Positions 9 to 47,654 of a DNA stretch of 64,000 bases are shown in pieces. The notes beneath the pieces are model-generated. The model worked only from the letters and a program-made list of their open reading frames with translations, ran no database searches and had not been told where the DNA came from. Position numbers and translations under genes: made by a program. This stretch comes from Planctomycetota bacterium (GTDB taxonomy: Bacteria > Planctomycetota > UBA1135 > GCA-002686595): contig JAKLKU010000007.1 of assembly GCA_023150475.1 (NCBI GenBank), positions 246,110 through 310,109 on the forward strand. Direction: 5' to 3'. Positions within the stretch are counted from its first letter, which is position 1. The number at the start of each line of letters is the position of its first letter.

Positions 9-2405
9 GTGTTGGTCGCGCTGCATTGGCCGGCGCGCGGCCCGCGCGTGGGGGACGCCGAGCGTGGGTCGGAGGCGTCGAGCGCGGTCGCGACGGGCGG
101 CGCCGCGGCAGGCGACGAACTCGGCGCCGACACGACTCCCGCGTCCGTCGCGGGCGCGCTCGAAGTGCTTGCGTTGCGCGCGGCGGACCGCACGCCGATC
201 GAAGAGCTCGCGCTCGCGTTGCGGTTGCTCGACGACGACACGTTCGAGCCGCGGCTCGCGTACACCGATCGCCAAGGGCTCGTGCGCTTCGACGACGTGC
301 CCGCCGGCGACGTGGTCGTCGAAAGTGCGGTCGGCGGCGAGCTCCACGCGCTCGTGCGTTCGAAGAAGTGCGGCCGGCGCACGCTGCTCGTCGCGCGCGG
401 CGTCGACGTGCGCGGTCGAGTGCTCTCGCCCACCGGCCTGCCTCTCGCGGGCGCGACGCTCGTGCTCGCGCGCGAGACGGAGCTCGACGACCTGCGTCAC
501 GCGTGGCCGGTCGCGATCAGCGACCCGTTCGGCCGTTTCGCGCTTCCGGACGTCGCGCCCGGCGCGAGGCGGCTCGTCGCACGCCATCCGCGGTTCGCGC
601 CGAGCGCGGCGTATGCGCTCACGAGCGAGCCGGGCTGCGCGCGCGAGCTCGACGTCGTGCTCGGAGGGCCCGCGGCGGAACTGCGCGGTCGTGTGCTCGA
701 CGAGTTCGGCAAGTTGCTGCCGGCCGTGCGCGTGACGGTCGGTCCGCTCGAGCCCTCGGGCGCGCGAGAGAGCGACTCGAGCACGAACGGGGAACGGCCG
801 GTCACCGCGCTCGCGACGCACACCGACGAACGCGGCGAGTTCGTCCTGCGCGGCTTGCCGATCGGCGCGAGCTGGATCGAAGCGCGCGCGGAAGGGTTCG
901 TCGCGGCGTGCGCGCAACGCACGCTCGCGCCGGGTGCGAACGAGCGGCTCGAGCTCGTGCTTCCGCGCGGCGCGCGGCTCGCCGGCGGCGCACGGCTCTC
1001 GCACGGCGCTCCCGCGCGGCACGCGAACGTCCGCGCCAGCGTCGCGGGTGGCGACGAACGCATCACGCGCGCGGCGCTCGACGGCTCGTTCGTGCTCGAC
1101 TCGCTTCCGCCAGGCGTCGTGCACGTCGTGATCGACTGGCAAGGCGAGCAGTGGGCGGAGACGGAGCTCGAGCTCGGCCGCGAGGGTGCTCGTTTCGACG
1201 CAACGCTGGAACCGGTGCGGGCGCTCGCCGGCAGCGTCGTCGATGCACGCGGCGAGCCGCTCGCCGATGCGACGGTGTGGCTCGCGCTCACGAGCGGCGG
1301 CGATCACCCTCGGGCGCGCATCGCGCGCACGGCCGCCGACGGCCGCTTCCGTTTCGCCGGCCTCGTCGAGCGCGACCACGAACTGCGTGTCTTCGCCGAC
1401 GCGGAGCAACTCTGCGAGCTCGCGCGACGCGAGCGCGTGCGACCTGGCGCGGACGCGCTCGCCATCGTCGTCGACGCAAAGCGGCTGCCCACCGCGAGGA
1501 TCGTCGGCCGCGTGCTCGGACCGGACGCTCGTGGCCTTGCCGGCGCAGAGGTGCGCGCTCGACGTGCAGGGCTCGAGCTCGTGCCCTGCGAGACCGACGA
1601 GGACGGCGCGTTCGAACTCGGGCCGCTCGCTCCAGGCGCGTGGTGGTTGTGCGTCGAGCCTCCGAAGGTTTCGCGAATCGGACTCGCCGATGGCGCGTCC
1701 GTCGCGGACGCGCAGCATGATCGATCGAGCGCCGAACTCGCGCCGCGCGCGTTCGCGATCGCCGAGCTCGCTCCCGGCGAGGTGCGCGACACCGGTGACC
1801 TCGCGCTCGAACGCGGCGCGCGTCTTCGCGTGCGCTGCGGGCCCGAGCCCCAGCACGAGTGCGGGCCCGAGCCCCAGCACGAGTGCGGCCCCGAGCCCCA
1901 GCACGAGTGCGGCCCCGAGCTCGAGCTCGAGTCCGGACTCGACGTGCCGCGCGCAGCCGACGCGGCCCTCGGCGCTCCCGTGATCGTCGCGCGTTCGTTC
2001 GATGGTCTCTTCGTCGAATGGCTCGACTTCGAGGGCGGCGTCGCGCGTTCGCGGCCGTTGCCGCCCGGGCGTTGGCGGGTCGCGCTCGAGGCGGGCGCGG
2101 GCCTCGCGCTCCAAGCGCAAGAGGTCGAGCTCGGCGAGGCCGACGTGGAGCTCGCGTTCGAGCTGCTTCGCGGTCGCGAGGTCGCGCTGCGGTTCGACGA
2201 CGACGTTCACGAGGTGCTCGTCGGCGCGGCAGGCGGCCGGGTGCTGCTCGAACGTGAGCTCGGCGTGTCGCGCGAGCTCGAACTGGTGCTCGCGCCGGAG
2301 CGCTACCGCCTCGAGCTCCGCGCCTCGGACGGCCGGACGCGTTCGCTGGACTTCGAAATCACTCGCAGCTCGCCACGCCGCGTGTTCGACGTGAAGATGG
2401 AGTGA
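9..2405 (+). CDS. Carboxypeptidase-regulatory-like (CnaB/transthyretin-like) repeat protein, possibly 5'-truncated by the window edge
   Basis: Multiple repeats of 'G.V.D..G.PLA.A.V.L.....TDADGRFRF..L' type (e.g. LAGSVVDARGEPLADATVWLALTSGG...TAADGRFRFAGL); stop abuts the next gene. Confidence 0.75.
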   Translation: MLVALHWPARGPRVGDAERGSEASSAVATGGAAAGDELGADTTPASVAGALEVLALRAADRTPIEELALALRLLDDDTFEPRLAYTDRQGLVRFDDVPAGDVVVESAVGGELHALVRSKKCGRRTLLVARGVDVRGRVLSPTGLPLAGATLVLARETELDDLRHAWPVAISDPFGRFALPDVAPGARRLVARHPRFAPSAAYALTSEPGCARELDVVLGGPAAELRGRVLDEFGKLLPAVRVTVGPLEPSGARESDSSTNGERPVTALATHTDERGEFVLRGLPIGASWIEARAEGFVAACAQRTLAPGANERLELVLPRGARLAGGARLSHGAPARHANVRASVAGGDERITRAALDGSFVLDSLPPGVVHVVIDWQGEQWAETELELGREGARFDATLEPVRALAGSVVDARGEPLADATVWLALTSGGDHPRARIARTAADGRFRFAGLVERDHELRVFADAEQLCELARRERVRPGADALAIVVDAKRLPTARIVGRVLGPDARGLAGAEVRARRAGLELVPCETDEDGAFELGPLAPGAWWLCVEPPKVSRIGLADGASVADAQHDRSSAELAPRAFAIAELAPGEVRDTGDLALERGARLRVRCGPEPQHECGPEPQHECGPEPQHECGPELELESGLDVPRAADAALGAPVIVARSFDGLFVEWLDFEGGVARSRPLPPGRWRVALEAGAGLALQAQEVELGEADVELAFELLRGREVALRFDDDVHEVLVGAAGGRVLLERELGVSRELELVLAPERYRLELRASDGRTRSLDFEITRSSPRRVFDVKME
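1836..1931 (+). repeat. In-frame minisatellite, 4 x 24 bp (TGCGGGCCCGAGCCCCAGCACGAG), encoding CGPEPQHE repeats; last copy degenerate
   Basis: Direct reading: copies at 1836, 1860, 1884, 1908. Confidence 0.95.
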
Positions 2406-3670
2406 GCCCGAAACGAGGCTCGCTCCCGATGACGTCGCGTTCGATCCGTTGGTCCGTCGCGCTCGGCGCGTGCGCCGTCGCAGCGTGGGCACTCGTCGCG
2501 ATGCTCCGCCACGCACCGCCGGCGGCCGCCACGCGTGCGGGGACGGCGACCGCCGAAGCGCGTGTCGCCGCCCCCGAGCTCGCGCTCCCCGATGCTGCGA
2601 CGGTCGAGCGCTCGCCGCGCGCCGTCGCTGCCGAGCCCGTGGCGCCGGACGCCGTCGTTCCCGCCGAAGTGGCACCACAGCTCGGCGAGCTGCGCGGTCG
2701 TGTGCTGCTCGACGCGACGTTCTCCGACGCCCAGACGCTCGTCACGTTGACTTGGCACGGTTCGTTGCCGGCGCCGGAGTCTGCTCCGGACGGCGCGAAG
2801 GCCACGTCGCGAACGCAGCGTGCTCCGGGTCAGTCGACCGTGACCCACGAACGACTCTCGGCGCAGGGCGAGAGCGACGACTCGGAAGTGACGCATGCCG
2901 TCGGTCCGCATGTCGGCAGCGCGTTCGACTTCGAGTTCGGGGGGCTCGTGCCGGGCGAGTACGAGCTCGGCCTCGTGAGCGTGCCGAGCTCGCACGCCGC
3001 CACCGGCGCGGCGATGCTGGGCGTCGGGCCCGGGCGTTTCTTCTCGCTCGACGAGGTGCTCGTCACCGCGGGCGAGCCGACGCGCGACCCGCGGCTCGAT
3101 CCGCTCGATCTGCGCGGCAAGATCGTGCGAGCCCGGTACGTGGTCGTCGACGGCTACGGCGTGCCACGCGCGTCGGCGGAGTGCCGTGCGATCGCCAGCG
3201 CGACGTCGCAGTCGTACGCGACGAGCGACGAACACGGCAACGTCGAGTTCGTGCTCGCGGCGAACGTCGAAACGATCGAGATCGAGATCGAGCGTCACAC
3301 GACCTGCATCGTGCGCACGCCGCTCGCGTTCGGACGCAGCGTCGTCGTCGTGCCCGATCGGCCGACGCACGTCTTGCACGTCGATCCGGACTCGCTGCCG
3401 CAGTCGGGCGAGCTCTCGATCTTCGTGCGCGAGGCGGAAGAACTCTCCGGCTCGAGTTCGCTCGGCCGTGGCGCGACGTGGAGCCGTTTCGATGCCGCCG
3501 GCGACGCCGTCGTCGCGCCGCGTAGGCTCGGGCCGCACGAGCTCGAGTGGCGCCTGAAGCGTCCCGACGATACGTCGAAGTCGCTCGTCGACCCCGTGCA
3601 ACGGCTCGAAGTGCGCGCTCCCGGCGAAGCGGTCGTGGTCGAGCTCGTCGTGCCCGCGGAGCTGCGTTGA
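2402..3670 (+). CDS. Hypothetical exported/anchored protein, paralogue of the next gene
   Basis: N-terminal hydrophobic segment; shares DPLDLR...ARYV.VD..GVP...A...S.ELGNVE.V.AA....E......C.V.TP....RSVVVVP.RPT.VL.IDP with 3674..4909. Confidence 0.7.
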   Translation: MSPKRGSLPMTSRSIRWSVALGACAVAAWALVAMLRHAPPAAATRAGTATAEARVAAPELALPDAATVERSPRAVAAEPVAPDAVVPAEVAPQLGELRGRVLLDATFSDAQTLVTLTWHGSLPAPESAPDGAKATSRTQRAPGQSTVTHERLSAQGESDDSEVTHAVGPHVGSAFDFEFGGLVPGEYELGLVSVPSSHAATGAAMLGVGPGRFFSLDEVLVTAGEPTRDPRLDPLDLRGKIVRARYVVVDGYGVPRASAECRAIASATSQSYATSDEHGNVEFVLAANVETIEIEIERHTTCIVRTPLAFGRSVVVVPDRPTHVLHVDPDSLPQSGELSIFVREAEELSGSSSLGRGATWSRFDAAGDAVVAPRRLGPHELEWRLKRPDDTSKSLVDPVQRLEVRAPGEAVVVELVVPAELR

Positions 3671-3673
3671 GCC

Positions 3674-4909
3674 GTGCGACTCTCGCGCCGGCCTGCAGCG
3701 TGGCTCGTGCTGGTCGTGGCGGGCGTCGTGCTCGCGATGTGGCTCGTGCGCGGCTTTCGCGCAGCGTCGGAGGCGACGACGATCGGCGCGCCGCGAGCCA
3801 CGCGCGCGACGGGCGCGACGGGCTCGACACGCGAGCTCGTGGACCTCGCCGAGCCTGACGATGCACGCGCACGCGCGCCCGCGGAACCGGGCGCGAGCGA
3901 ACCGGCGCCGGCCGCACCGTCGGCCACATCGCCGACCGCGGACTCGGGCGACGAAGCGCTGGGTGGGCTCGAAGGCACGCTGTGGCTTGCGCCGGAGCTC
4001 GCGACGCACGAGTGGCGCATCCGCGTCGAACGCGTGCCGAAGTCGGCGCTCGCTCGCACGTCCAGCGAATGCACGTTCACACGGACCGCGTGCCTCGAGT
4101 TCGCGTTCGCCGACCTCGTCCCCGGCTGGTACACGGCGCGTGTCGAACTCGTGCGCCGCTTGCCGCCGCGGTCGCCGCCCGAAGTCAATGGCAACGGCAA
4201 CGGCAACGGCGCAGGCGACCGCGAAGGCGAAGTCGACGCCGAAGGCACGGGGCTCGCGGAACTGCTGCACGTCGACTACGGCCTCGAAGTCGTCGGCGGC
4301 GAATCGACGCGCTCGCCGGAGTGGGACCCGCTTGATCTGCGCGACGCCTATCGTTTGGCGCGCTACGTCTTGGTCGACGAAGTCGGAGTGCCTTGGCGGG
4401 GCGCCGTGGTGAGGTCGAGCACAGACGCCGAAAGCGAATTCACGAGCGTCAGCGACGAGCTCGGCAACGTCGAGATCGTGGTCGCCGCGGCCGCGACGCA
4501 GGTCGAACTGACGCTGCGCGGCGCCGACGCATGCGCCGTCGAGACGCCGTTCACGAGCGCGCGTTCGGTGGTCGTCGTGCCGCGGCGGCCGACGTACGTG
4601 CTCGAGATCGATCCGACTCTGGTGCCGTCGGACCGTTGGCTCGGACTGTCCGTCCAAGCGGTGCGAGTCGACGGGAGCGAGTCCTCCGTCCGAACCGATC
4701 GCGCGTACGTCGAGTTCGAACCCGGGAGCGGCACGGTCCGCCTGCAGCCGACCCGGCTCGGTGCGCACGAGCTCCAGTGGCTGGTGAAGCGCCAAGGCCG
4801 CGGGACGGTCTTCATCGACTCACCGACCCGCTTGGACGTGCAACCGCGCGCCGAACCCGTGCATGTACGCCTCGACTTGCCGGAAGCCGTGCTCGCGGCG
4901 CTGCGCTGA
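3674..4909 (+). CDS. Hypothetical exported/anchored protein, tandem paralogue of 2402..3670
   Basis: GTG start 3 bp after the previous stop; N-terminal TM; homologous C-terminal half to 2402..3670; NGNGNGNG low-complexity insert at ~4186-4212. Confidence 0.7.
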   Translation: MRLSRRPAAWLVLVVAGVVLAMWLVRGFRAASEATTIGAPRATRATGATGSTRELVDLAEPDDARARAPAEPGASEPAPAAPSATSPTADSGDEALGGLEGTLWLAPELATHEWRIRVERVPKSALARTSSECTFTRTACLEFAFADLVPGWYTARVELVRRLPPRSPPEVNGNGNGNGAGDREGEVDAEGTGLAELLHVDYGLEVVGGESTRSPEWDPLDLRDAYRLARYVLVDEVGVPWRGAVVRSSTDAESEFTSVSDELGNVEIVVAAAATQVELTLRGADACAVETPFTSARSVVVVPRRPTYVLEIDPTLVPSDRWLGLSVQAVRVDGSESSVRTDRAYVEFEPGSGTVRLQPTRLGAHELQWLVKRQGRGTVFIDSPTRLDVQPRAEPVHVRLDLPEAVLAALR

Positions 4910-4940
4910 CGCGAGCCCGCGAAATCCTGGATTGGAGCTC

Positions 4941-4960
4941 TTGACAGCGCGTCATTGTCA
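4941..4960 (+). promoter_or_regulatory. Putative -35 (TTGACA) overlapped by inverted repeat TGACA-N9-TGTCA; candidate autoregulatory operator for the ArsR gene
   Basis: TTGACA at 4941-4946; TGACA 4942-4946 / TGTCA 4956-4960; local AT-rich stretch 18 bp upstream of the GTG start. Confidence 0.45.
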
Positions 4961-4977
4961 TTTCACTCTATAGCTAA

Positions 4978-5358
4978 GTGATTCGAGCCCGCCTGTCCCC
5001 CGACCCCGACCGACTCAGCGCGACCTTCGCCGCGCTGGCCGACCCGACGCGTCGCGCGATCCTCGCGCGGCTCGCCCGCGGCGAATCGTCGGTCACCGAG
5101 CTCGCGCAACCGTTCGACCTCAGCCTGCCGGCGATCTCGAAGCACCTCGCGGTGCTCGAACGCTCCGGTCTGGTCGAGCGGCGGCGCGAAGCACGTTGGC
5201 GCTACTGCAAGCTCGATCCCGAGCCGCTGAAAGACGCGTCGGCGTGGATCGAGGAGTACCGCAGGTTCTGGGAGCAGAGCTTCGATCGGCTCGACGCGTA
5301 CTTGAAGGAGCTCCAGAAAGGACCTCGCGATGCCGACCCGCCTCGACCCGCCCCCTGA
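4978..5358 (+). CDS. ArsR-family winged-helix transcriptional regulator
   Basis: ALADPTRRAILARLARGESSVTELAQPFDLSLPAISKHLAVLERSGLVERRREAR..Y matches the ArsR/SmtB HTH signature. Confidence 0.93.
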   Translation: MIRARLSPDPDRLSATFAALADPTRRAILARLARGESSVTELAQPFDLSLPAISKHLAVLERSGLVERRREARWRYCKLDPEPLKDASAWIEEYRRFWEQSFDRLDAYLKELQKGPRDADPPRPAP

Positions 5359-6793
5359 CTTCGCTCGCGAGTTCGTCTTCTCGCGCACGTTCGACGCGCC
5401 GCGGGCCGCCGTGTTCGCCGCGTGGACCGATCCGGCGATCCTCGCCTTGTGGTGGGGGCCGAAGGGCTTCACCAGTCCACGCTGCGAGCTCGACGCGCGC
5501 ATCGGCGGCGCGATCCACGTCGACATGCGCGGTCCGGACGGAATCGTGCATCCGATGGCGGGCGAAGTGCGCGAGCTCGTCGAGCCCGAACGCTTCGTCT
5601 TCACTGCGGGTTCGCTCGACGAGCACGGCGAGCGGCTCTTCCAAGTCCGCAATGCGATTCACTTCGCCGAACACGGCGGTCGGACGATCGTCACGGTGCG
5701 CGCGCGCTTCGAGTGGATCACGCCGGGCATGGAGTCGTCGCTCGGCGGCATGGATCCGGGCTGGAACGAATCGCTGGATCGTATGGTCGCCGTCGTGCTC
5801 GCGCGCGCCGCGGACATCCGGCGCGGCTCGACCGACGGCAACGAAGCGACCTCGGAACTCGGGATCGAGCTCTCGCGCGTGTTCGACGCGCCGGTCGAAC
5901 TCGTGTGGGACGTGTGGACGCGCGCGGAGCACATCGCGCGTTGGTGGGGCCCGAGCGGTTTCTCGACGACGATCGAGCAGTTCGACTTTCGGCCCGGCGG
6001 TCGGTTCAAGCACACGATGCACGGCCCCGACGGCACCGACTATCCGAACCTGAGCGTGTTCCGCGCGATCGTCCCGTACGAGCGCATCGACTACACGCAC
6101 TCCGGAGGCGAGGAAGACGGGCCGGGCGCGAGTTTCCAAGGCTCGTGGCGGTTCCAGGCGCTCGCCGGCGGCCGCACCAAGGTCACGATCTCGCTGACGT
6201 TCCCGACCCGCGAACGGCGCGACTTCGTGATCCGCGAGTTCGGCGCGATCGCGGGCGGCAAGCAGACGCTCGCGCGGTTCGACGAACACGTCGCCAGCGT
6301 GCGTGCGGCGGACGAGCTCGTGATCGAGCGCACGTTCGACGCGCCGCGCGAAATCGTGTTCGCTGCGTGGACCGAGCTCGAACGCTTGAAGTCGTGGTGG
6401 GGGCCGAAGGGCTTCGAGTGGCTCGGCGGCACGCTCGATCTGCGGCCCGGCGGACGGTTCCACTACGGCATGCGCGCTCCGGGTGGCGGCGAGATGTGGG
6501 GCAAGTTCGTGTGGCGCGAGATCGTGCGGCCCGAACGGCTGGTGTACATCGTTTCGTTCTCCGACGCGGCGGGCGGGACGACGCGCCATCCGCTCGCGCC
6601 GACGTGGCCGCTCGAAATGCTCAACACGTTGCTCTTCGTCGAACACGGCGCACGGACGAAGCTCGTGCTGCACGGATTGCCGCTCGGCGCGAACGACGCC
6701 GAGCGCGAAACGTTCCGCAAGGCGCACGAAGGCGTGCGCGGTGGGTTCAAGGGCACGCTCGACCAACTCGAAGCGTTCTTGGCCGGCAAGTGA
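5330..6793 (+). CDS. Three-domain SRPBCC/AHSA1 (activator of Hsp90 ATPase-like) protein
   Basis: Three tandem copies of 'RTFDAPRE.VFAAWT....L..WWGPKGF....DLRPGGRF...M.GPDG'; overlaps the arsR 3' end by 29 bp. Confidence 0.9.
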   Translation: MPTRLDPPPDFAREFVFSRTFDAPRAAVFAAWTDPAILALWWGPKGFTSPRCELDARIGGAIHVDMRGPDGIVHPMAGEVRELVEPERFVFTAGSLDEHGERLFQVRNAIHFAEHGGRTIVTVRARFEWITPGMESSLGGMDPGWNESLDRMVAVVLARAADIRRGSTDGNEATSELGIELSRVFDAPVELVWDVWTRAEHIARWWGPSGFSTTIEQFDFRPGGRFKHTMHGPDGTDYPNLSVFRAIVPYERIDYTHSGGEEDGPGASFQGSWRFQALAGGRTKVTISLTFPTRERRDFVIREFGAIAGGKQTLARFDEHVASVRAADELVIERTFDAPREIVFAAWTELERLKSWWGPKGFEWLGGTLDLRPGGRFHYGMRAPGGGEMWGKFVWREIVRPERLVYIVSFSDAAGGTTRHPLAPTWPLEMLNTLLFVEHGARTKLVLHGLPLGANDAERETFRKAHEGVRGGFKGTLDQLEAFLAGK

Positions 6794-40549: not shown

Positions 40550-40832
40550 CGAACAGTGAACGGGCCAAGCGACGAAGGAAGCGCTTGAATTCCGTGTGTT
40601 GAGTTCGTCTTGAGCTCATGGGTCTTTCGTCGAAATCGCGAAATGCCGCCAGAGCATTCGTCATCCGCGTCCTCACTCGGGCGACGCAAGCTCATCACTG
40701 GATCAACGCGCCGTCGTCACGTGTGCATCACGAAGACCAGCCGTGCGTTGCGAACTCATCCATTCTCGAGCAATCCAGAGATTGCAGGACGAATCTCAAT
40801 TCGCGCGTTCGTCGATGGCCGCGTCGGTTGTG

Positions 40833-41336
40833 CTACCGATAGTAGTGGCTGCGAACACTCGCCTGCCACTTCTGGAACACTGCTGCCAAGGCCTTCTTCG
40901 CTGAGGCTGACATGGTCGGATCCGGCATTCGGTGTATGAACACGTCAGTAACGCCGGGGTCGAATACCCCGCCCGTGATTCCATCCTCGGCGAACACGAG
41001 GAGCGGTAATTGGAGGCCAAACAGAATCCCAGCTTCAAGCTGGTTCCATGGAGTTGGGAAGGGAACCGCACGCGTCACCGGCTTTTCCGACGGGGTTCCG
41101 CGCTTTGCGATCCCGGTCTGCAATTGGATCTGCTCGAAGCCGAGGATCACACCCCCGGAGCAGTGCTTCGCCAGGAGGAAGACCTCTCGAAGGGGTAGAT
41201 CCGTCGGGTAATCGGACCGGCCGAGCGCACGGGGCTCGAGGTTCGCACGGTCGAGTTCGCGCAGAATCATCTTTCGCGAAGCGTCCTGTGCAGCGTTCAG
41301 ACTTGTGGGACAAGACACGAACACAGGGATCTTCAC
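40833..41336 (-). CDS. Small TIR/NDT-like Rossmannoid protein (conserved hypothetical)
   Basis: GTG start with GAAGGAA upstream; KIPVFVSCPTSLN...CSGGVILGFEQ...FPTPWNQLEAGILFGLQLPLLVFAEDGITGGVFD; W-x2-L-E arrangement recalls TIR/NDT folds; lower GC. Confidence 0.7.
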   Translation of the reverse strand: MKIPVFVSCPTSLNAAQDASRKMILRELDRANLEPRALGRSDYPTDLPLREVFLLAKHCSGGVILGFEQIQLQTGIAKRGTPSEKPVTRAVPFPTPWNQLEAGILFGLQLPLLVFAEDGITGGVFDPGVTDVFIHRMPDPTMSASAKKALAAVFQKWQASVRSHYYR

Positions 41337-41344
41337 ATTGGTTC

Positions 41345-41649
41345 CTTCAAGAGTTTGAAGCGGGCGGAGATCCGCGTTGCAGTGCGAACGATCGACGCTC
41401 CGCCTCACGGAAGAGTATGCGCTGGCCGTCCACATGCCAAGTGGGAACTACGTGGTACGGGCGGACCGCGGGGAGCGCGCCGTCGGACGGGGCGCGAGGT
41501 CACTGGAGCCGAACGGACATGCCGGTGACGAACGCCTCGCGCGACGAACTGCCTTCAAGCACTTCTTCGTCGCTGCAGTTCAGGTCGAATGACTCGACTC
41601 GCGCGTCGTCCAGCTTCGCCGAGGCCCAATCGCCCGGGTTTGGCATCGG
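41345..41649 (-). pseudogene. Possible interrupted small ORF upstream of the TIR-like gene (one in-frame TGA at 41500-41502)
   Basis: MPNPGDWASAKLDDARVESFDLNCSDEEVLEGSSSREAFVTGMSVRLQ*PRAPSDGALPAVRPYHVVPTWHVDGQRILFREAERRSFALQRGSPPASNS*, ending just before the 41336 GTG start. Confidence 0.3.
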
Positions 41650-41705
41650 CACGCGTTCGAGCCCCGACCGCGTGCTCGTATGGGCACTCCCCGCCCCCGA
41701 CCTTG

Positions 41706-42830
41706 TCAGGCCTCCAGCCGAGCGCCGCACGCGATTGCGTACGCGCTCCAGGTCGCGCGACTGCAGCGGAGCCAGGTCCACTCGGCGGCGTGGGTGCGGC
41801 CGCGCGCGGCGAGAGCGCGGGCGAACTCGGGGTCCGACAGCACCGACTTCGCCGCCGCATGCAGCGCGTCGACGTCTTCCGGGTCGGGCAGGAGTGCGCC
41901 GTCGCCGCACACTTCGGGCAGCGTCGTCGCCGAGCTCGCGATCGTCGGGGCGCCGAGCAGCATCGCCTCGAGCGGCGGCAGGCCGAAGCCTTCCGACAGG
42001 CTCGCGAAGAAGAAGAGCTCGCACTGCGCCATCAGCCGCGCGAGCTCCGCGTCGTCGACGAACTCGCGCACCTCGATCCGTTCTCTCGCCGGCGAAGCCT
42101 CGACCGCGCGCAAGAACGCCTCCGTGCGCCAGCCATGCGGGCCGACGACGAGCCAACGGTGCGGGAACCCGTCGCGCACGAGCCTCTCGAACGCCGCGAG
42201 CATGCGCAGGTGGTTCTTGCGCGGGTCGATGCGGCTCGCGGTCAGCACGAAACGTCCACTTGCCGGCGCGAAGCCTTCCGGCGGAACGTGGCGCAGCACG
42301 TGATCGCAGCCGAGCGGCGTGACCGCGATGCGCTCGCGCGCGACACCGAACGCACGCTCGACTTCACGCGCGACGAACTGCGTCGGCACGAAGAGCAGCG
42401 ACGAACGTTCGACGAGCGCACGCGCGGCGCGGCTCATGCGCTCCGCGGTCTCCGGCTCGACGAAACGCCCGTCGCGTTCGAGGTAGATCGTGTCGAAGAT
42501 CGTCGCGACTTCGCGCGCGCGGCGCACCGGGAGCACGTTCGGCTGCGTGTGGTGCCACACGTCGACGCCGCCGAGCGAGTCGTCGGCGCCGCGACCGCTC
42601 GCACGCAGCAACGTCGGCAGGAGTTTCGCGGGCAAACGCCGCCGCACGAGCCTCGCGCGGCCGTAGCCGAGCTCGTCGGTCGAGAAGCGGCTCTGCGCGA
42701 GCGTCGAACCGAACAACGCGACGTCTCGATCGTGCCCGAGCTCGACGAACGAACGCACGAGTTCGCGCGCGTAACGCCCGATGCCCTCGCGATTCTGCAG
42801 TCCGGGCCGGAAGTCGAGGCCGACGCGCAT
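41706..42830 (-). CDS. GT4-family glycosyltransferase
   Basis: MRVGLDFRPGLQNREGIGRYARELV...TASRIDPRKNHLRMLAAFERL...FASLSEGFGLPPLEAMLLGAPTIAS. Confidence 0.93.
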   Translation of the reverse strand: MRVGLDFRPGLQNREGIGRYARELVRSFVELGHDRDVALFGSTLAQSRFSTDELGYGRARLVRRRLPAKLLPTLLRASGRGADDSLGGVDVWHHTQPNVLPVRRAREVATIFDTIYLERDGRFVEPETAERMSRAARALVERSSLLFVPTQFVAREVERAFGVARERIAVTPLGCDHVLRHVPPEGFAPASGRFVLTASRIDPRKNHLRMLAAFERLVRDGFPHRWLVVGPHGWRTEAFLRAVEASPARERIEVREFVDDAELARLMAQCELFFFASLSEGFGLPPLEAMLLGAPTIASSATTLPEVCGDGALLPDPEDVDALHAAAKSVLSDPEFARALAARGRTHAAEWTWLRCSRATWSAYAIACGARLEA

Positions 42831-42894
42831 GGGCCGAGGATTCTACGGACGCGCGGCGCGCGCCGTCTTGTGCCGAGCGACGACGCCGCGTGAA

Positions 42895-45747
42895 ATGCGA
42901 GGTGGGATGGGTGAGGAGGGAGCCGCAACGCCGGGGATCGACGAGCTCGTGATCCGCGCGCTCGATGCGCTGGAGCGCGGCGCGCACGACGAAGTCGAGG
43001 CGCTGTGCACGGCGCATCCCGAGCACGCGTCGACGTTGCGGCGACGCATCGCGTTGCTCGGTGGGCTCGGCGTGCTCGGTGGGCTCGGCGTGCTCGGTGC
43101 GCCGGCGAAGCCGGTCGCGAGCGACGGCCACGAACGGCTCGGCGAGTTCGAGCTCCTCGAGCAGCTCGGCGCCGGCGGCATGGGCGTCGTCTACCGCGCG
43201 CGCCAAGAGAGGCTGCAGCGCGACGTCGCGCTCAAGATCGTGCGGCCGGAGTTCCTCTACTTCCCCGAGACGCGCGAGCGATTTCGCCGCGAAGTCGAGA
43301 CCGTCGCGCGTTTGCAGCACCCGGGCATCGTGCCGGTCTATTCGGTCGGTGAAGAACGCGGCGTGCCGTTCTTCACGATGGAGTTCGTGTCCGGTGCGTC
43401 GCTCGAGAAGGTCCTCGCGCGCGTGCGCGGCCGCGAGCCCGCGAAGTTGACGGGCGCCGATCTCGCGCCTGCGCCGGAACGTTCGGGTTGGCTCTTCGCC
43501 GGTTCGTGGGAGGATGCGTGCCTGCGGATCGTGCGGCAAGTCGCGGAGGCGCTCGAGCACGCGCACGAACGTGGCGTGATCCACCGCGACTTGAAGCCGT
43601 CGAACGTGATGTTGTCCGCCGGCGCGGCGAGCCGCGTGCTCCTGCTCGACTTCGGTCTCTCGAGCCTCGCCGGTTCCGGCAAGTTGACGCGCACCGGCGC
43701 GCAACTCGGCACGCTCGACTACATGTCGCCGGAGCAAGTGCGCGGCGACGCTGCGGCGATCGGGCCGGCGTCGGACGTCTATTCGCTCGGCGCGACGCTG
43801 TACGAGCTCCTGACGCTCGCAAAACCGTTCGAAGCGACTTCGCTGTCCGCTGCAGCCGTCGCGATCGAGCGCGGCGAGCTCGTCGCGCCGCGTGCGCGGA
43901 ATCCCGCGCTGTCGTGGGAGGCCGAGACGATCGTGCTGACCGCGATGGATCGTGATCCTTCCCGGCGTTATCCGTCCGCCGCCGCGTTCGCACGAGATCT
44001 CGAGAACGCGCTCGCGAAACGACCGCTCGACGCGAAGCGCATGTCGCCGTGGCTCGTGGTGCGGCGTTGGATCGAGCGCAATCCGATGCGCGCGATCGCG
44101 GCCGGACTGCTCGCGCTGGTCGCGCTCGGCGGTCCGTCGCTCTGGGCGTGGCAACAGCAGCGCGCGGCCCGCGAGGTCGCCGCGGAACGCGACGTCGCGC
44201 AAGCGAACCTCGATCGCGCGCTCGCCGCCGTCGACGCGATGCTCGTCGAAGTCGCGTCCGAGCGTCTGCAGGACGTGCCGCAAGTGCAGACCGTGCGCCG
44301 CGCGCTGCTCGAACGTGCGCGCAGCTTCTACGACGAGTTCCTGGCCGTTTCAGGCGACGATCCGCGGATCGCACGCGGGCAAGGCGACGTGCATCGCAAG
44401 CTCGCGGGCGTGTTGCACGGCCTGGGCGAATTCGAACGCGCCGCGGCCGTCGCGCGCACCGCGGTCGAATTCGGTGAACGCGAGCTCGCCGCCGCAGTGG
44501 GCGCCGAAAGGGTGGAGGGCGACGTCGTGGCCGCCGACCGCGCGCGCATCGCGATCGCCGAAGCGCGCAGCGTGCACTCGAAAGCGCTGTGGAAGCTCGG
44601 GTTGCCCGATGACGCGGAACGCGAGGTCCGCGCGGCGCTGGACGAGCTCGATCGTCTGGTCGCGCGCGGCGTCGGCGGCGACGAACTCCGGCTGACGGCG
44701 GTCGACACGCGTTGCGATTTCGCGTTCGTGTTGCGCACGCTCGATCGACGCGACGACGCGGCGCGGGAGATCTCGCGCGCCGAGCAGGACGGCCTCGCGT
44801 TGATGGCGGCACACGCGACGGACCCGCGTTTCGCGACGACCGTCGCGGAAGTGCTGCGCGAGCGAGCGTTCCTGGCCGTGTTCGCCCGAGACCACGAAGC
44901 GGCGCGTGAGCTCCACGAACGTGAAGTCGCCCTGCTCGAGCCGGTGCGCGCCGCGCATCCCGACGACACGGACGTCGAGCATTCGCTCGCGATCGCCGTC
45001 GCGAACCTCGGGCGCGCGACGCTCGATCTCGGCGACGCGCGCACGGCTCTCCCGGTGCTCGAGCGCGCCGTCACGTTGCTCTCGAACTTCGTCGTCGCGT
45101 ATCCGCTCGACACGACCGCTCGTGCGACGCTCGCCGGCTGCATGATCAACCTGGGCATCGTCGAAGGCGCAAGCGGAGACGTCCGCGCGACCCTCGCTCG
45201 GTTCCAGGCGGCGCGCGAGCAACTCGCGCGTGCGGCGAGCGACCGGCCCGACAATTTCGACCCGCTGATCCAACTCGCGCAGCTCGAGTTCAACGTCGCG
45301 ATGGCGCACGCGCGGCTCGGCGAACTCGACCGCACCGCCGAGACGCTCGACGCGGCCTACGCGACGATCGGCACGGTGCGCCGCGCGTTCCCGGCGAACG
45401 TCGAGTACGCCGGCATCGAGCGCAGCATCGTGCAACGTTCCGTGCAGGCCGCGGTCGCATTGGAGCGCGGCGCGCAGGCGATCGAGTACGCCGGCCGTTT
45501 CGTCCCGAGCGACGATCCCGCGTCGCTCTTCGAGCACGCGCGCTTGTACGCGTCGTGCGTACCGCTCGCCGCGCCAAGCGAGGACTCCGTGCGCGCCGCG
45601 TTGCTCGACAGGACGTTCGCCGCACTCGACCGCGCGCTCGCCGCCGGCTTCGCGGACGCAGACGCGCTCGCGACGCCGACGTGGGAGCCGCTGTCCGCGG
45701 ACGCGCGCCTCACCGCGGCGCGCGAACGGCTCGGTGCCCGGAAGTAG
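42895..45747 (+). CDS. Receptor-type Ser/Thr protein kinase (kinase-TM-TPR)
   Basis: LGAGGMGVVYRARQERLQRDVALKIV, HRDLKPSNVML, DFGLSS, MSPEQVRGD; TM AIAAGLLALVALGGPSLWAW; C-terminal helical repeats. Confidence 0.94.
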   Translation: MRGGMGEEGAATPGIDELVIRALDALERGAHDEVEALCTAHPEHASTLRRRIALLGGLGVLGGLGVLGAPAKPVASDGHERLGEFELLEQLGAGGMGVVYRARQERLQRDVALKIVRPEFLYFPETRERFRREVETVARLQHPGIVPVYSVGEERGVPFFTMEFVSGASLEKVLARVRGREPAKLTGADLAPAPERSGWLFAGSWEDACLRIVRQVAEALEHAHERGVIHRDLKPSNVMLSAGAASRVLLLDFGLSSLAGSGKLTRTGAQLGTLDYMSPEQVRGDAAAIGPASDVYSLGATLYELLTLAKPFEATSLSAAAVAIERGELVAPRARNPALSWEAETIVLTAMDRDPSRRYPSAAAFARDLENALAKRPLDAKRMSPWLVVRRWIERNPMRAIAAGLLALVALGGPSLWAWQQQRAAREVAAERDVAQANLDRALAAVDAMLVEVASERLQDVPQVQTVRRALLERARSFYDEFLAVSGDDPRIARGQGDVHRKLAGVLHGLGEFERAAAVARTAVEFGERELAAAVGAERVEGDVVAADRARIAIAEARSVHSKALWKLGLPDDAEREVRAALDELDRLVARGVGGDELRLTAVDTRCDFAFVLRTLDRRDDAAREISRAEQDGLALMAAHATDPRFATTVAEVLRERAFLAVFARDHEAARELHEREVALLEPVRAAHPDDTDVEHSLAIAVANLGRATLDLGDARTALPVLERAVTLLSNFVVAYPLDTTARATLAGCMINLGIVEGASGDVRATLARFQAAREQLARAASDRPDNFDPLIQLAQLEFNVAMAHARLGELDRTAETLDAAYATIGTVRRAFPANVEYAGIERSIVQRSVQAAVALERGAQAIEYAGRFVPSDDPASLFEHARLYASCVPLAAPSEDSVRAALLDRTFAALDRALAAGFADADALATPTWEPLSADARLTAARERLGARK
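43060..43095 (+). repeat. 18-bp tandem duplication (GGTGGGCTCGGCGTGCTC x2) encoding GGLGVLGGLGVL
   Basis: Direct reading. Confidence 0.85.
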
Positions 45748-45812
45748 CCACGCCGAATCTGTGCGGAGCTGGCGATCCGCGATAGTGTCTTGCGCTTCGC
45801 ACGGAGGGAGAC

Positions 45813-47471
45813 GTGCTGTTCGTCAGCTTTCAAGATCGTGGTCACGACAAGGAGAATGCGCGCGCCTTCGCCGAAGGGCTGCGCGCGCTCGGCATCGACG
45901 TTTGGTGCTCGGCGATTCCAGGCACCATTCCGAAAGGGCAAACGAGCAATGCGGCTGTCGTTCGTGCGCTCGAGCGGTCAACTTGCTTCGTGTTGGTGAC
46001 GTCGGGGTCGATCGACTCGAACTGGGTCCTCGGCGAAATCGATACTGCACTCGAACGGGCGGACGAAGATGCCACGTACTCGATCGTGCCTGTGCTGCTA
46101 CCCGGCGCTCGGTCGCGCGACTTGCCGGTGGCGCTGCGGACGCTCGAGCGTCTAACCACCAGCGTCGAGCCGCGACGCGCGAACGCGGAAGCGTTTCGCG
46201 AGTGGGCGCGGAGTCTCGGCTTCCCGGTCGTCGAACCGCCACGTGACGCCCCTGCCAACGCGCGAACGCAGCCGGCACACGCAACGCCACCGGCGGGCGC
46301 AACGCGGGAGCCCGTGGTCGACGCACCTCTCGAAGCACACGAGCGCACGGCGGCGACGAGAGACTCCGACAACCAACGGCGAATGGAGCCCGAGCCGTTC
46401 TTCGTGCGGCCGGGGGCACTGCTGTCGCTGCTCGCCGTGACGCTCGTGCTCACGGGCGGGTACTACATGTTCCGGCGTTTCGATGTCGTCGGTCCACTCG
46501 AACGACCCAAGCTTGGAACCGACGGTTCAGGTGTCGCCGCCGCGGCGTCGCCGCGTACATGGCCCGCGGTGCGCGAGAGGCTGACGCTCGACCCGCGTTT
46601 CGTGGGCGTCGAGTTGCCCGATCAAGTCGGCCTGCTTCCGCTCGGTCAGAACGGCCGTACGAGGCTCGAGGAGTTCGCAGTCGAAGGCACGGGTGCCGTG
46701 CCCAGCGAAGCGACTCGCGACGCCGAAGGAGTGCTGCCGATCACGGACGAGGACGCGATCGTGCTCGTGCTCGTCCCGCCCGGCTCATTCCAGATGGGCT
46801 CGCCGCCAGGAGTCAGAAACGGCGATGGACGTCCCCAACATCTGGTCACGTTCTCCCAGCCGTTCTTCATCGCGCGCACCGAACTCACGAACGCTCAACT
46901 GCGAGCCGTGCCTGTCGGGCGGAATTCGAGCGACGCACGGCTCCCGGCGGCCGGTGTTTCGTGGCACGACTTCGTAGGTCATGGTTCCACATTCGGCTTG
47001 CGGTTGCCGACCGAGTCCGAGTGGGAGTATGCGTGTCGAGCAGGGACGACGACGGAGTACAGCTTCGGCAATGATGCTGCGGGGCTCGCGACGCACGGTT
47101 GGTACTTCATCAACTCGGGGACGCAACCGCTGGACGAGCAGACCGAGTGGAAGTTTGGGAACCTGGACGAGTGGGGGTGCCGAGCCCATCCAGTCGGAGA
47201 TGCGACGAAGTTGGCAAATCCGTGGGGCTTGCACGACATGCACGGGAACGTGTGGGAGTGGTGCGCGGACAGCTGGCACTGGAACTATGAAGGGGCGCCG
47301 AATGACGGCAGTCAGCGGTTGGATCAGGAGTCTCCAGATCGCGTGGTGCGCGGCGGGGCGTTCGATACTCCCGCCGGACACCTGCGGTCGGCGTCCCGGC
47401 GCAGATCTAACGCGGCGGAGCCATCGCGCAGTGTCGGAGCGCGCTACGCCCGGTCTGTCGCCACGAATTGA
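45813..47471 (+). CDS. TIR domain - TM - formylglycine-generating-enzyme-like (FGE/C-lectin fold) receptor-like protein
   Basis: GTG start with GGAGGGAG RBS; LFVSFQDRGHDKENARAFAEGLRALGIDVW...CFVLVTSGSIDSNWVLGEIDTAL (TIR); TM ALLSLLAVTLVLTGGYYMF; PPGSFQMGSPPG...ISWHDF-like, LPTESEWEYACRAGTTTEYSFGND, NPWGLHDMHGNVWEWCADSW, RVVRGGAFD (FGE-sulfatase). Confidence 0.9.
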   Translation: MLFVSFQDRGHDKENARAFAEGLRALGIDVWCSAIPGTIPKGQTSNAAVVRALERSTCFVLVTSGSIDSNWVLGEIDTALERADEDATYSIVPVLLPGARSRDLPVALRTLERLTTSVEPRRANAEAFREWARSLGFPVVEPPRDAPANARTQPAHATPPAGATREPVVDAPLEAHERTAATRDSDNQRRMEPEPFFVRPGALLSLLAVTLVLTGGYYMFRRFDVVGPLERPKLGTDGSGVAAAASPRTWPAVRERLTLDPRFVGVELPDQVGLLPLGQNGRTRLEEFAVEGTGAVPSEATRDAEGVLPITDEDAIVLVLVPPGSFQMGSPPGVRNGDGRPQHLVTFSQPFFIARTELTNAQLRAVPVGRNSSDARLPAAGVSWHDFVGHGSTFGLRLPTESEWEYACRAGTTTEYSFGNDAAGLATHGWYFINSGTQPLDEQTEWKFGNLDEWGCRAHPVGDATKLANPWGLHDMHGNVWEWCADSWHWNYEGAPNDGSQRLDQESPDRVVRGGAFDTPAGHLRSASRRRSNAAEPSRSVGARYARSVATN

Positions 47472-47654
47472 CTTCACCACATTACTCGGAGTGCGTCCGT
47501 GCGGGCTGTGGGCCGGATGGAGTGTGTTGACGAAGGAGACGCGTGCAGTGGTGCCTTGGTCATGCGCACGACTGCGACGACGGTGGCGTCCAGTGTGACG
47601 AGCGAAGCGAGGCCACCAAGGACGGAAGGTCATCGGTGCCCTGCGTCAAGCGGC

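What the first reader, a model, noticed from the sequence alone, without database searches (positions are those of the whole stretch)
45813..47471. TIR - transmembrane - FGE/C-lectin-fold receptor-like protein
A cytoplasmic TIR domain with a W-V-x2-E motif (SNWVLGEIDTAL), where the catalytic Glu of NADase TIRs is expected, is followed by one TM and an extracytoplasmic FGE-sulfatase (C-lectin fold) domain. The FGE C-terminus (LRSASRRRSNAAEPSRSVGARYARS) lacks the paired active-site cysteines of true formylglycine-generating enzymes, so it looks like a ligand-binding rather than catalytic domain. The layout is an external sensor coupled to an internal TIR effector, like a Toll-type receptor.
Basis: partly seen in the sequence, partly recalled or inferred. 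Interest (0 to 1): 0.8.

Follow-up and report, generated by a model that had tools for sequence, protein, structure and literature searches.

The report
TIR–membrane–FGE sensor protein on an island
A planctomycete bacterium carries, in a small genome-specific gene block, a membrane protein whose inner half is a predicted TIR immune enzyme and whose predicted outer half is a non-catalytic FGE (C-type-lectin-fold) domain shared with a local family of receptor kinases, so it looks like an outside sensor wired to an immune-type output, though this is untested.

Summary
ORF 45813-47471 encodes one 552-aa protein: TIR (Pfam TIR_2, E 3e-11; fold search hits TIRs), WxxxE motif (W71/E75; E75 invariant in our TIR set), one hydrophobic helix (about 201-219), and an FGE domain (E 3e-40) lacking the CxxxxC active site that a true FGE in the same genome keeps. 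New: (1) the linker+FGE half matches the ectodomain of a large planctomycete family of PknB kinase-TM-linker-FGE proteins, so this is a receptor with a swapped output domain; (2) only two other proteins of this TIR-linker-FGE layout appear in 154 genomes of the class, and both lack the TM; (3) the gene lies in a 7.1-kb four-gene block (200-aa orphan, glycosyltransferase, Ser/Thr kinase, TIR-TM-FGE) absent from the same site in three congeners; (4) TIR-FGE also occurs in a cyanobacterium and, with TM, in an acidobacterium; TIR and kinase fusions to C-type-lectin-fold sensors are published for cyanobacteria. Best reading: an extracytoplasmic sensor whose clustering activates a TIR NADase, probably for defence. 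Topology is inferred, activity untested. A new variant of a known kind, not a Toll receptor.

The parts
45813..47471 (+). TIR-TM-linker-FGE gene, 552 aa, GTG start
   Evidence: GGAGGGA ribosome-binding site at 45803-45809
45819..46160 (+). TIR domain (residues 3-116)
   Evidence: Pfam TIR_2 E 3e-11; Foldseek top hits mainly TIR domains
46035..46037 (+). Codon of E75, the Glu of the WxxxE motif (W71-E75), position of the catalytic Glu of NADase TIRs
   Evidence: invariant among aligned TIRs
46413..46469 (+). Predicted single transmembrane helix, residues about 201-219 (AlphaFold helix 200-225)
   Evidence: hydropathy maximum 1.89 at 196-214
46545..46760 (+). Conserved linker module (residues about 245-316), shared with kinase-TM-FGE proteins and the other TIR-FGE proteins
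46764..47453 (+). FGE-sulfatase / C-type-lectin-fold domain (residues 318-547), no CxxxxC
   Evidence: Pfam E 3e-40; PvdO, FGE and TvpA as structural neighbours; cysteines absent
47358..47435 (+). Most variable loop region (residues about 516-541), at the place of the active-site loop of true FGEs
   Evidence: column entropy over 49 sequences
42898..45747 (+). PknB-type Ser/Thr kinase with TPR-like C-terminal part, 65 bp upstream on the same strand; same accessory block
   Evidence: Pfam Pkinase E 3e-42; best match of its C-terminal part in congeners only 30% identity
41706..42830 (-). GT4 glycosyltransferase of the same block (also scores with Pfam GT4-conflict)
   Evidence: Pfam PF00534 E 1e-24, PF20706 E 3e-14
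40833..41435 (-). 200-aa protein of the same block, no family; sequence pattern resembles TIR / nucleoside-deoxyribosyltransferase-like domains (inference by eye)
   Evidence: no family; homologues in only 2 other genomes of the class
40550..47654 (.). 7.1-kb accessory block between the SDR gene and the flippase gene, absent from this site in three congeners
   Evidence: 59-88 nt between the aligned ends of the two flanking genes in G001, G002, G003

Best explanation
The protein is a single-pass membrane sensor with TIR inside and FGE outside. The FGE (C-type-lectin-fold) domain, held near the membrane by the conserved linker module, binds a ligand in the envelope (a phage component, a competitor's product or damaged envelope material). 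Binding clusters the protein and brings the cytoplasmic TIR domains together so that E75 can cleave NAD+, either depleting it (abortive response) or making an ADP-ribose-type signal. The adjacent kinase may tune or share the pathway. Shown: domains, intact WxxxE motif, TM-like helix, loss of the FGE cysteines, homology of linker+FGE with kinase ectodomains, accessory block. Inferred: membrane orientation, ligand binding, TIR catalysis, defence role.
For: TIR_2 and FGE hits; TIR fold; E75 invariant; TM-like helix. The linker+FGE half is shared with kinase-TM-linker-FGE proteins whose TM lies 26-32 aa after the kinase and whose flanking charges (K+R 4.1 before, 2.5 after) put FGE outside. No CxxxxC, with a true FGE in the same genome as control. 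Most variable region at the active-site loop. Accessory 7.1-kb block and low GC3, sporadic distribution. TIR and kinase fusions to C-type-lectin-fold domains are published as likely sensors (PMC7517822; PMC10907252); the related DUF4062 domain is an antiphage NADase (PMC13174449) and is also fused TM-FGE in G096.
Against: The two nearest TIR-linker-FGE proteins lack the TM. The TM is modest and its flanking charges are not decisive. TIR model confidence is moderate. No PADLOC system matches well; best hit E 0.0014 to a TIR-SAVED model. No recognised defence genes beside it other than a kinase, which is a common gene type in this genome (44 copies). No experiment.
Confidence: 0.45

Rival explanations
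1. Kinase co-receptor: the TIR is a protein-interaction (scaffold) domain without needed enzymatic activity, and the protein works with the adjacent PknB kinase in envelope signalling, its FGE domain serving as ligand-binding subunit.
For: Kinase directly upstream here (65 bp) and in G004, part of the same accessory block; kinases of this lineage normally carry this FGE ectodomain themselves, and the neighbouring kinase does not.
Against: The G007/G096 pair has only weak kinase-like ORFs several kilobases away; E75 and the WxxxE motif are intact.
Confidence: 0.2
2. Cytoplasmic sensor: the hydrophobic helix is only an anchor or is not inserted with the FGE part outside, and FGE senses something in the cytoplasm, as in the TM-less relatives and in cyanobacterial TIR-FGE and kinase-FGE proteins.
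For: TM absent in G007 and G096 relatives and in the cyanobacterial L198; no TM in most cyanobacterial kinase-FGE proteins; published cyanobacterial variable proteins are mostly cytosolic.
Against: Helix present; with a single N-in TM the C-terminal half must be outside; kinase relatives in this class have the TM before the same linker.
Confidence: 0.15
3. Non-defence envelope or self-recognition sensor using NAD+-derived signalling for housekeeping regulation, the block being ordinary accessory content linked to the glycosyltransferase and neighbouring polysaccharide genes.
For: Glycosyltransferase inside the block and a flippase-type gene next to it.
Against: The flippase is conserved without the block in congeners; TIR NADases known from the literature act largely in immunity or cell death.
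Confidence: 0.13
4. The FGE half is an active enzyme (formylglycine-generating or PvdO-like oxidation) and the TIR regulates it.
For: PvdO is the best structural and sequence hit.
Against: No CxxxxC; scores far below the curated cut-offs of PvdO, EgtB and SenA; the active-site loop is the most variable stretch.
Confidence: 0.05

Closest known systems
PknB kinase-TM-linker-FGE proteins of the same planctomycete class
   Same: Same linker module and FGE domain, same position of a TM before the linker, same absence of FGE cysteines
   Different: Cytoplasmic domain is a Ser/Thr kinase, not TIR
TIR-FGE / TIR-C-type-lectin-fold proteins of cyanobacteria, including DGR variable proteins (PMC7517822, PMC10907252; L198 here)
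   Same: TIR domain fused to an FGE-type C-type-lectin-fold domain, proposed sensor function
   Different: L198 has no TM and the published ones are mostly cytosolic; many are diversified by a DGR, which this genome lacks
TIR-TM-FGE protein of a Pyrinomonadaceae acidobacterium (L191)
   Same: Same domain order with one TM
   Different: Different TIR subgroup, no linker module, FGE from another branch of the tree
DUF4062 TIR-like NADases (Swarozyc, PMC13174449)
   Same: TIR-like NADase family; a DUF4062-TM-FGE protein exists in the related genome G096
   Different: The window protein is TIR_2, not DUF4062; Swarozyc is reported to be triggered by phage portal protein inside the cell
Thoeris ThsB / other TIR antiphage proteins
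   Same: TIR domain with catalytic-type Glu
   Different: No ThsA neighbour; weak ThsB similarity (PADLOC E 0.0053); FGE sensor and TM not part of Thoeris
Animal Toll / Toll-like receptors
   Same: Layout: extracytoplasmic sensor, one TM, cytoplasmic TIR
   Different: LRR ectodomain and N-terminus outside in Toll (general knowledge); here TIR is N-terminal and the sensor is an FGE domain; no homology beyond the TIR

Membership tests
TIR domain (Pfam TIR_2, PF13676) | Profile match above the curated cut-off | tested here: met
   44.3 bits against 28
TIR domain (Pfam TIR_2, PF13676) | TIR fold | tested here: met
   Foldseek top hits mainly TIR domains; model confidence moderate
NADase TIR | Catalytic-type Glu in WxxxE position | tested here: met
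   W71/E75, invariant in aligned TIRs
NADase TIR | NAD+ cleavage | not testable with these tools
   needs an enzyme assay
Formylglycine-generating enzyme | FGE fold | tested here: met
   Pfam E 3e-40; structural hits PvdO and FGE
Formylglycine-generating enzyme | Active-site cysteine pair CxxxxC | tested here: not met
   absent; present in L004 of the same genome
PknB-TM-linker-FGE receptor family (ectodomain) | Linker module joined to FGE, TM before the linker | tested here: met
PknB-TM-linker-FGE receptor family (ectodomain) | N-terminal kinase domain | tested here: not met
   TIR instead of kinase
DGR variable protein | Reverse transcriptase / template repeat in the genome | tested here: not met
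   no RVT_1 match in the genome, which is about 91% complete; template repeat not sought
Toll-like receptor | LRR ectodomain and C-terminal TIR | tested here: not met
   no LRR match; TIR is N-terminal
Single-pass receptor with FGE outside | One TM between TIR and FGE | tested here: met
Single-pass receptor with FGE outside | N-terminus inside, FGE outside | tested here: inconclusive
   flanking charges not decisive here; supported by analogy with kinase relatives
Thoeris | ThsB match and ThsA neighbour | tested here: not met
   weak ThsB hit only; no ThsA-like gene in the block

The most novel reading that the evidence does not exclude
A bacterial surface receptor with an enzymatic TIR output, made by swapping the kinase of a planctomycete receptor family for a TIR NADase and carried in an accessory defence-type block: an independent bacterial counterpart of the Toll layout that senses phage or competitors before entry.
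Probability: 0.25. Interest if true: 0.8.

Novelty: new variant of a known kind. Interest (0 to 1): 0.5.

Why it matters
The antiphage TIR systems described in the papers consulted act on signals inside the cell. A TIR joined through a membrane helix to an ectodomain shared with receptor kinases would let a bacterium trigger an immune-type response from its surface, and suggests that one sensor scaffold is re-used with kinase, TIR, TIR-nSTAND1 and DUF4062 outputs. It offers a compact one-protein test of transmembrane activation of a TIR enzyme.

Tried and rejected
DGR diversification: no RVT_1 in the genome. True FGE enzyme: cysteines absent. Misassembled fusion: same GC3 over both halves, same domain pair in two relatives and TIR-TM-FGE in another phylum. 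Conserved kinase-TIR operon: a kinase directly upstream in the window and in G004, but not in the G007/G096 pair, so left open. One or several origins of the TIR swap: a quick FGE tree separates the window protein from the G007/G096 pair, but an AU test does not reject one clade (p 0.778; the second test of that call did not finish), and the TIR tree is unresolved. A viral-contig scan with the whole protein found many FGE proteins, none with TIR. Plasmid and phage searches found no record covering 80% of the query. Literature searches for TIR with FGE-sulfatase, and for planctomycete kinase-FGE proteins, returned nothing. No tRNA at the block; repeats found there look like chance matches in GC-rich DNA. 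One search served no purpose. A first attempt to hand in this report was malformed and not accepted.

Full report
Observation. The ORF at 45813-47471 (+) is a 552-codon gene with a GTG start and a good ribosome-binding site. Pfam finds TIR_2 at residues 3-116 (E 3e-11) and FGE-sulfatase at 318-547 (E 3e-40). Hydropathy gives one segment with its maximum (1.89) at 196-214, and AlphaFold a helix at 200-225. The full-length model is confident for the FGE domain, whose nearest solved structures include PvdO, FGE/SUMF1 and the Treponema variable protein TvpA. The TIR-only model (mean pLDDT 66.8) retrieves mainly TIR domains: SPARTA TIR-APAZ, SARM1, L7, TLR1. The WxxxE motif is W71-E75, and E75 is invariant among the TIRs aligned. 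The FGE domain has no CxxxxC; of 163 FGE domains examined two have it, one of them (L004) in this same genome, which serves as an internal control.

Where the sensor half comes from. Searching 41 relatives with the protein returns mostly long FGE proteins, many matching residues from about 245 onward. Many of these are PknB-type kinases with a TM 26-32 aa after the kinase domain, then a conserved linker module and FGE. Over 51 TM-bearing kinase-FGE proteins K+R averages 4.1 in the 15 residues before the TM and 2.5 after, as expected for kinase inside and FGE outside. The linker is strongly conserved (W250, Q271-x-G-L-x-P-x-G, L285-x-E-F), while the most variable stretches include residues about 519-540, the place of the active-site loop of true FGEs. 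The window protein therefore has the ectodomain of this receptor family with TIR in place of the kinase. The lineage is Planctomycetota: contig G031:C4 of the same order agrees in length and match position with a named Planctomycetota contig, JACQFD010000003.1.

Rarity and relatives. A model of TIR+linker has full-length matches in three of 154 genomes of the class, all three being the sequences it was built from: this one, G007 and G096, the latter two from one other genus (at most 14 candidates were scored per genome). Those two proteins lack the stretch of about 110 aa that holds the TM here. Other combinations seen: TIR-nSTAND1-TM-linker-FGE in G004 and DUF4062-TM-FGE in G096; TIR-FGE without TM in an Oculatellaceae cyanobacterium and TIR-TM-FGE in a Pyrinomonadaceae acidobacterium. 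Kinase, caspase-like and TIR N-termini on C-type-lectin-fold variable proteins are published for cyanobacteria (PMC7517822), and such domains are proposed as antigen sensors of conflict systems in multicellular bacteria (PMC10907252). DUF4062 is reported as an antiphage TIR-like NADase (PMC13174449). Whether the TIR swap in this class happened once or more often is unresolved.

Genomic setting. In all three congeners held, the genes for the SDR (39644 here) and the flippase (47655 here) are neighbours with 59-88 nt between their aligned ends. Here 7.1 kb with four genes lies between them: a 200-aa protein of no known family, a GT4 glycosyltransferase, a PknB-TPR kinase and the TIR-TM-FGE gene. 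GC3 of the TIR-FGE gene (0.75) and of the 200-aa gene (0.69) is below that of the other genes around (0.86-0.94). A gain here and a loss in the congeners are both possible; the sporadic distribution and GC3 favour a gain. No tRNA was found and no recombinase is among the four genes. The C-terminal part of the kinase has only about 30% identity to its best match in congeners, against 77-87% for the flanking genes. A kinase also lies directly upstream of the TIR-nSTAND1-FGE gene of G004, but the G007/G096 pair has only weak kinase-like ORFs several kilobases away. The genome has 44 kinase matches, so one neighbour alone is weak evidence.

Mechanism. Most likely the FGE domain binds a ligand outside the cytoplasmic membrane, clustering brings the TIR domains together, and E75 cleaves NAD+. 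Everything after the domain anatomy is inferred. Rivals are a kinase co-receptor with a scaffold TIR, a cytoplasmic sensor, a non-defence envelope sensor, and an active FGE-type enzyme, the last being least likely.

Verdict. Observation confirmed, interpretation partly supported. This is a new variant of a known kind: TIR and kinase fusions to C-type-lectin-fold sensors are published, but here a TIR sits on a transmembrane scaffold shared with a kinase receptor family, in an accessory gene block. The Toll comparison is one of layout only.

Noticed in passing
window 40833-41435 (-): 200-aa protein with no Pfam, PADLOC, NCBIfam or PDB match; homologues in 2 of 154 genomes of the class (35% and 28% identity). 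Its pattern (VFVS...; PWNQLEAGILFG) looks TIR / nucleoside-deoxyribosyltransferase-like by eye, so the block may hold two such domains. GC3 0.69.
   Followed up: partly
L076:1872-4955 (G004): TIR-nSTAND1-TM-linker-FGE protein (1028 aa) directly downstream of a kinase gene.
   Followed up: partly
L107:848-2395 - (G096): DUF4062-TM-FGE protein (Pfam PF13271 E 1.5e-11) with a possible TIR ORF starting divergently beside it: same layout with a different TIR-like NADase family.
   Followed up: partly
L191:3161-4684 and 4688-5830: Acidobacterial TIR-TM-FGE gene followed at once by a second FGE gene on the same strand.
   Followed up: no
L083:231-2066 (+) and 2093-4030 (-) (G076): Kinase-FGE gene convergent with a GAF-nucleotide cyclase-TIR gene.
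   Followed up: no
L004 (G000:C40:12679-13455): A likely true FGE with CxxxxC in the same genome; 13 FGE domains in all.
   Followed up: partly
linker module, window 46545-46760: Short, strongly conserved module (QxGLxPLGxDPxSxLxEF-type) before FGE in kinase and TIR proteins of this class; no Pfam match there; function unknown.
   Followed up: partly
Microcystis phages such as LMM01 (NC_008562.1:41775-42416): Phage genes annotated as kinase or hypothetical carry an FGE domain 37% identical to the window's; many viral contigs also carry FGE proteins.
   Followed up: no
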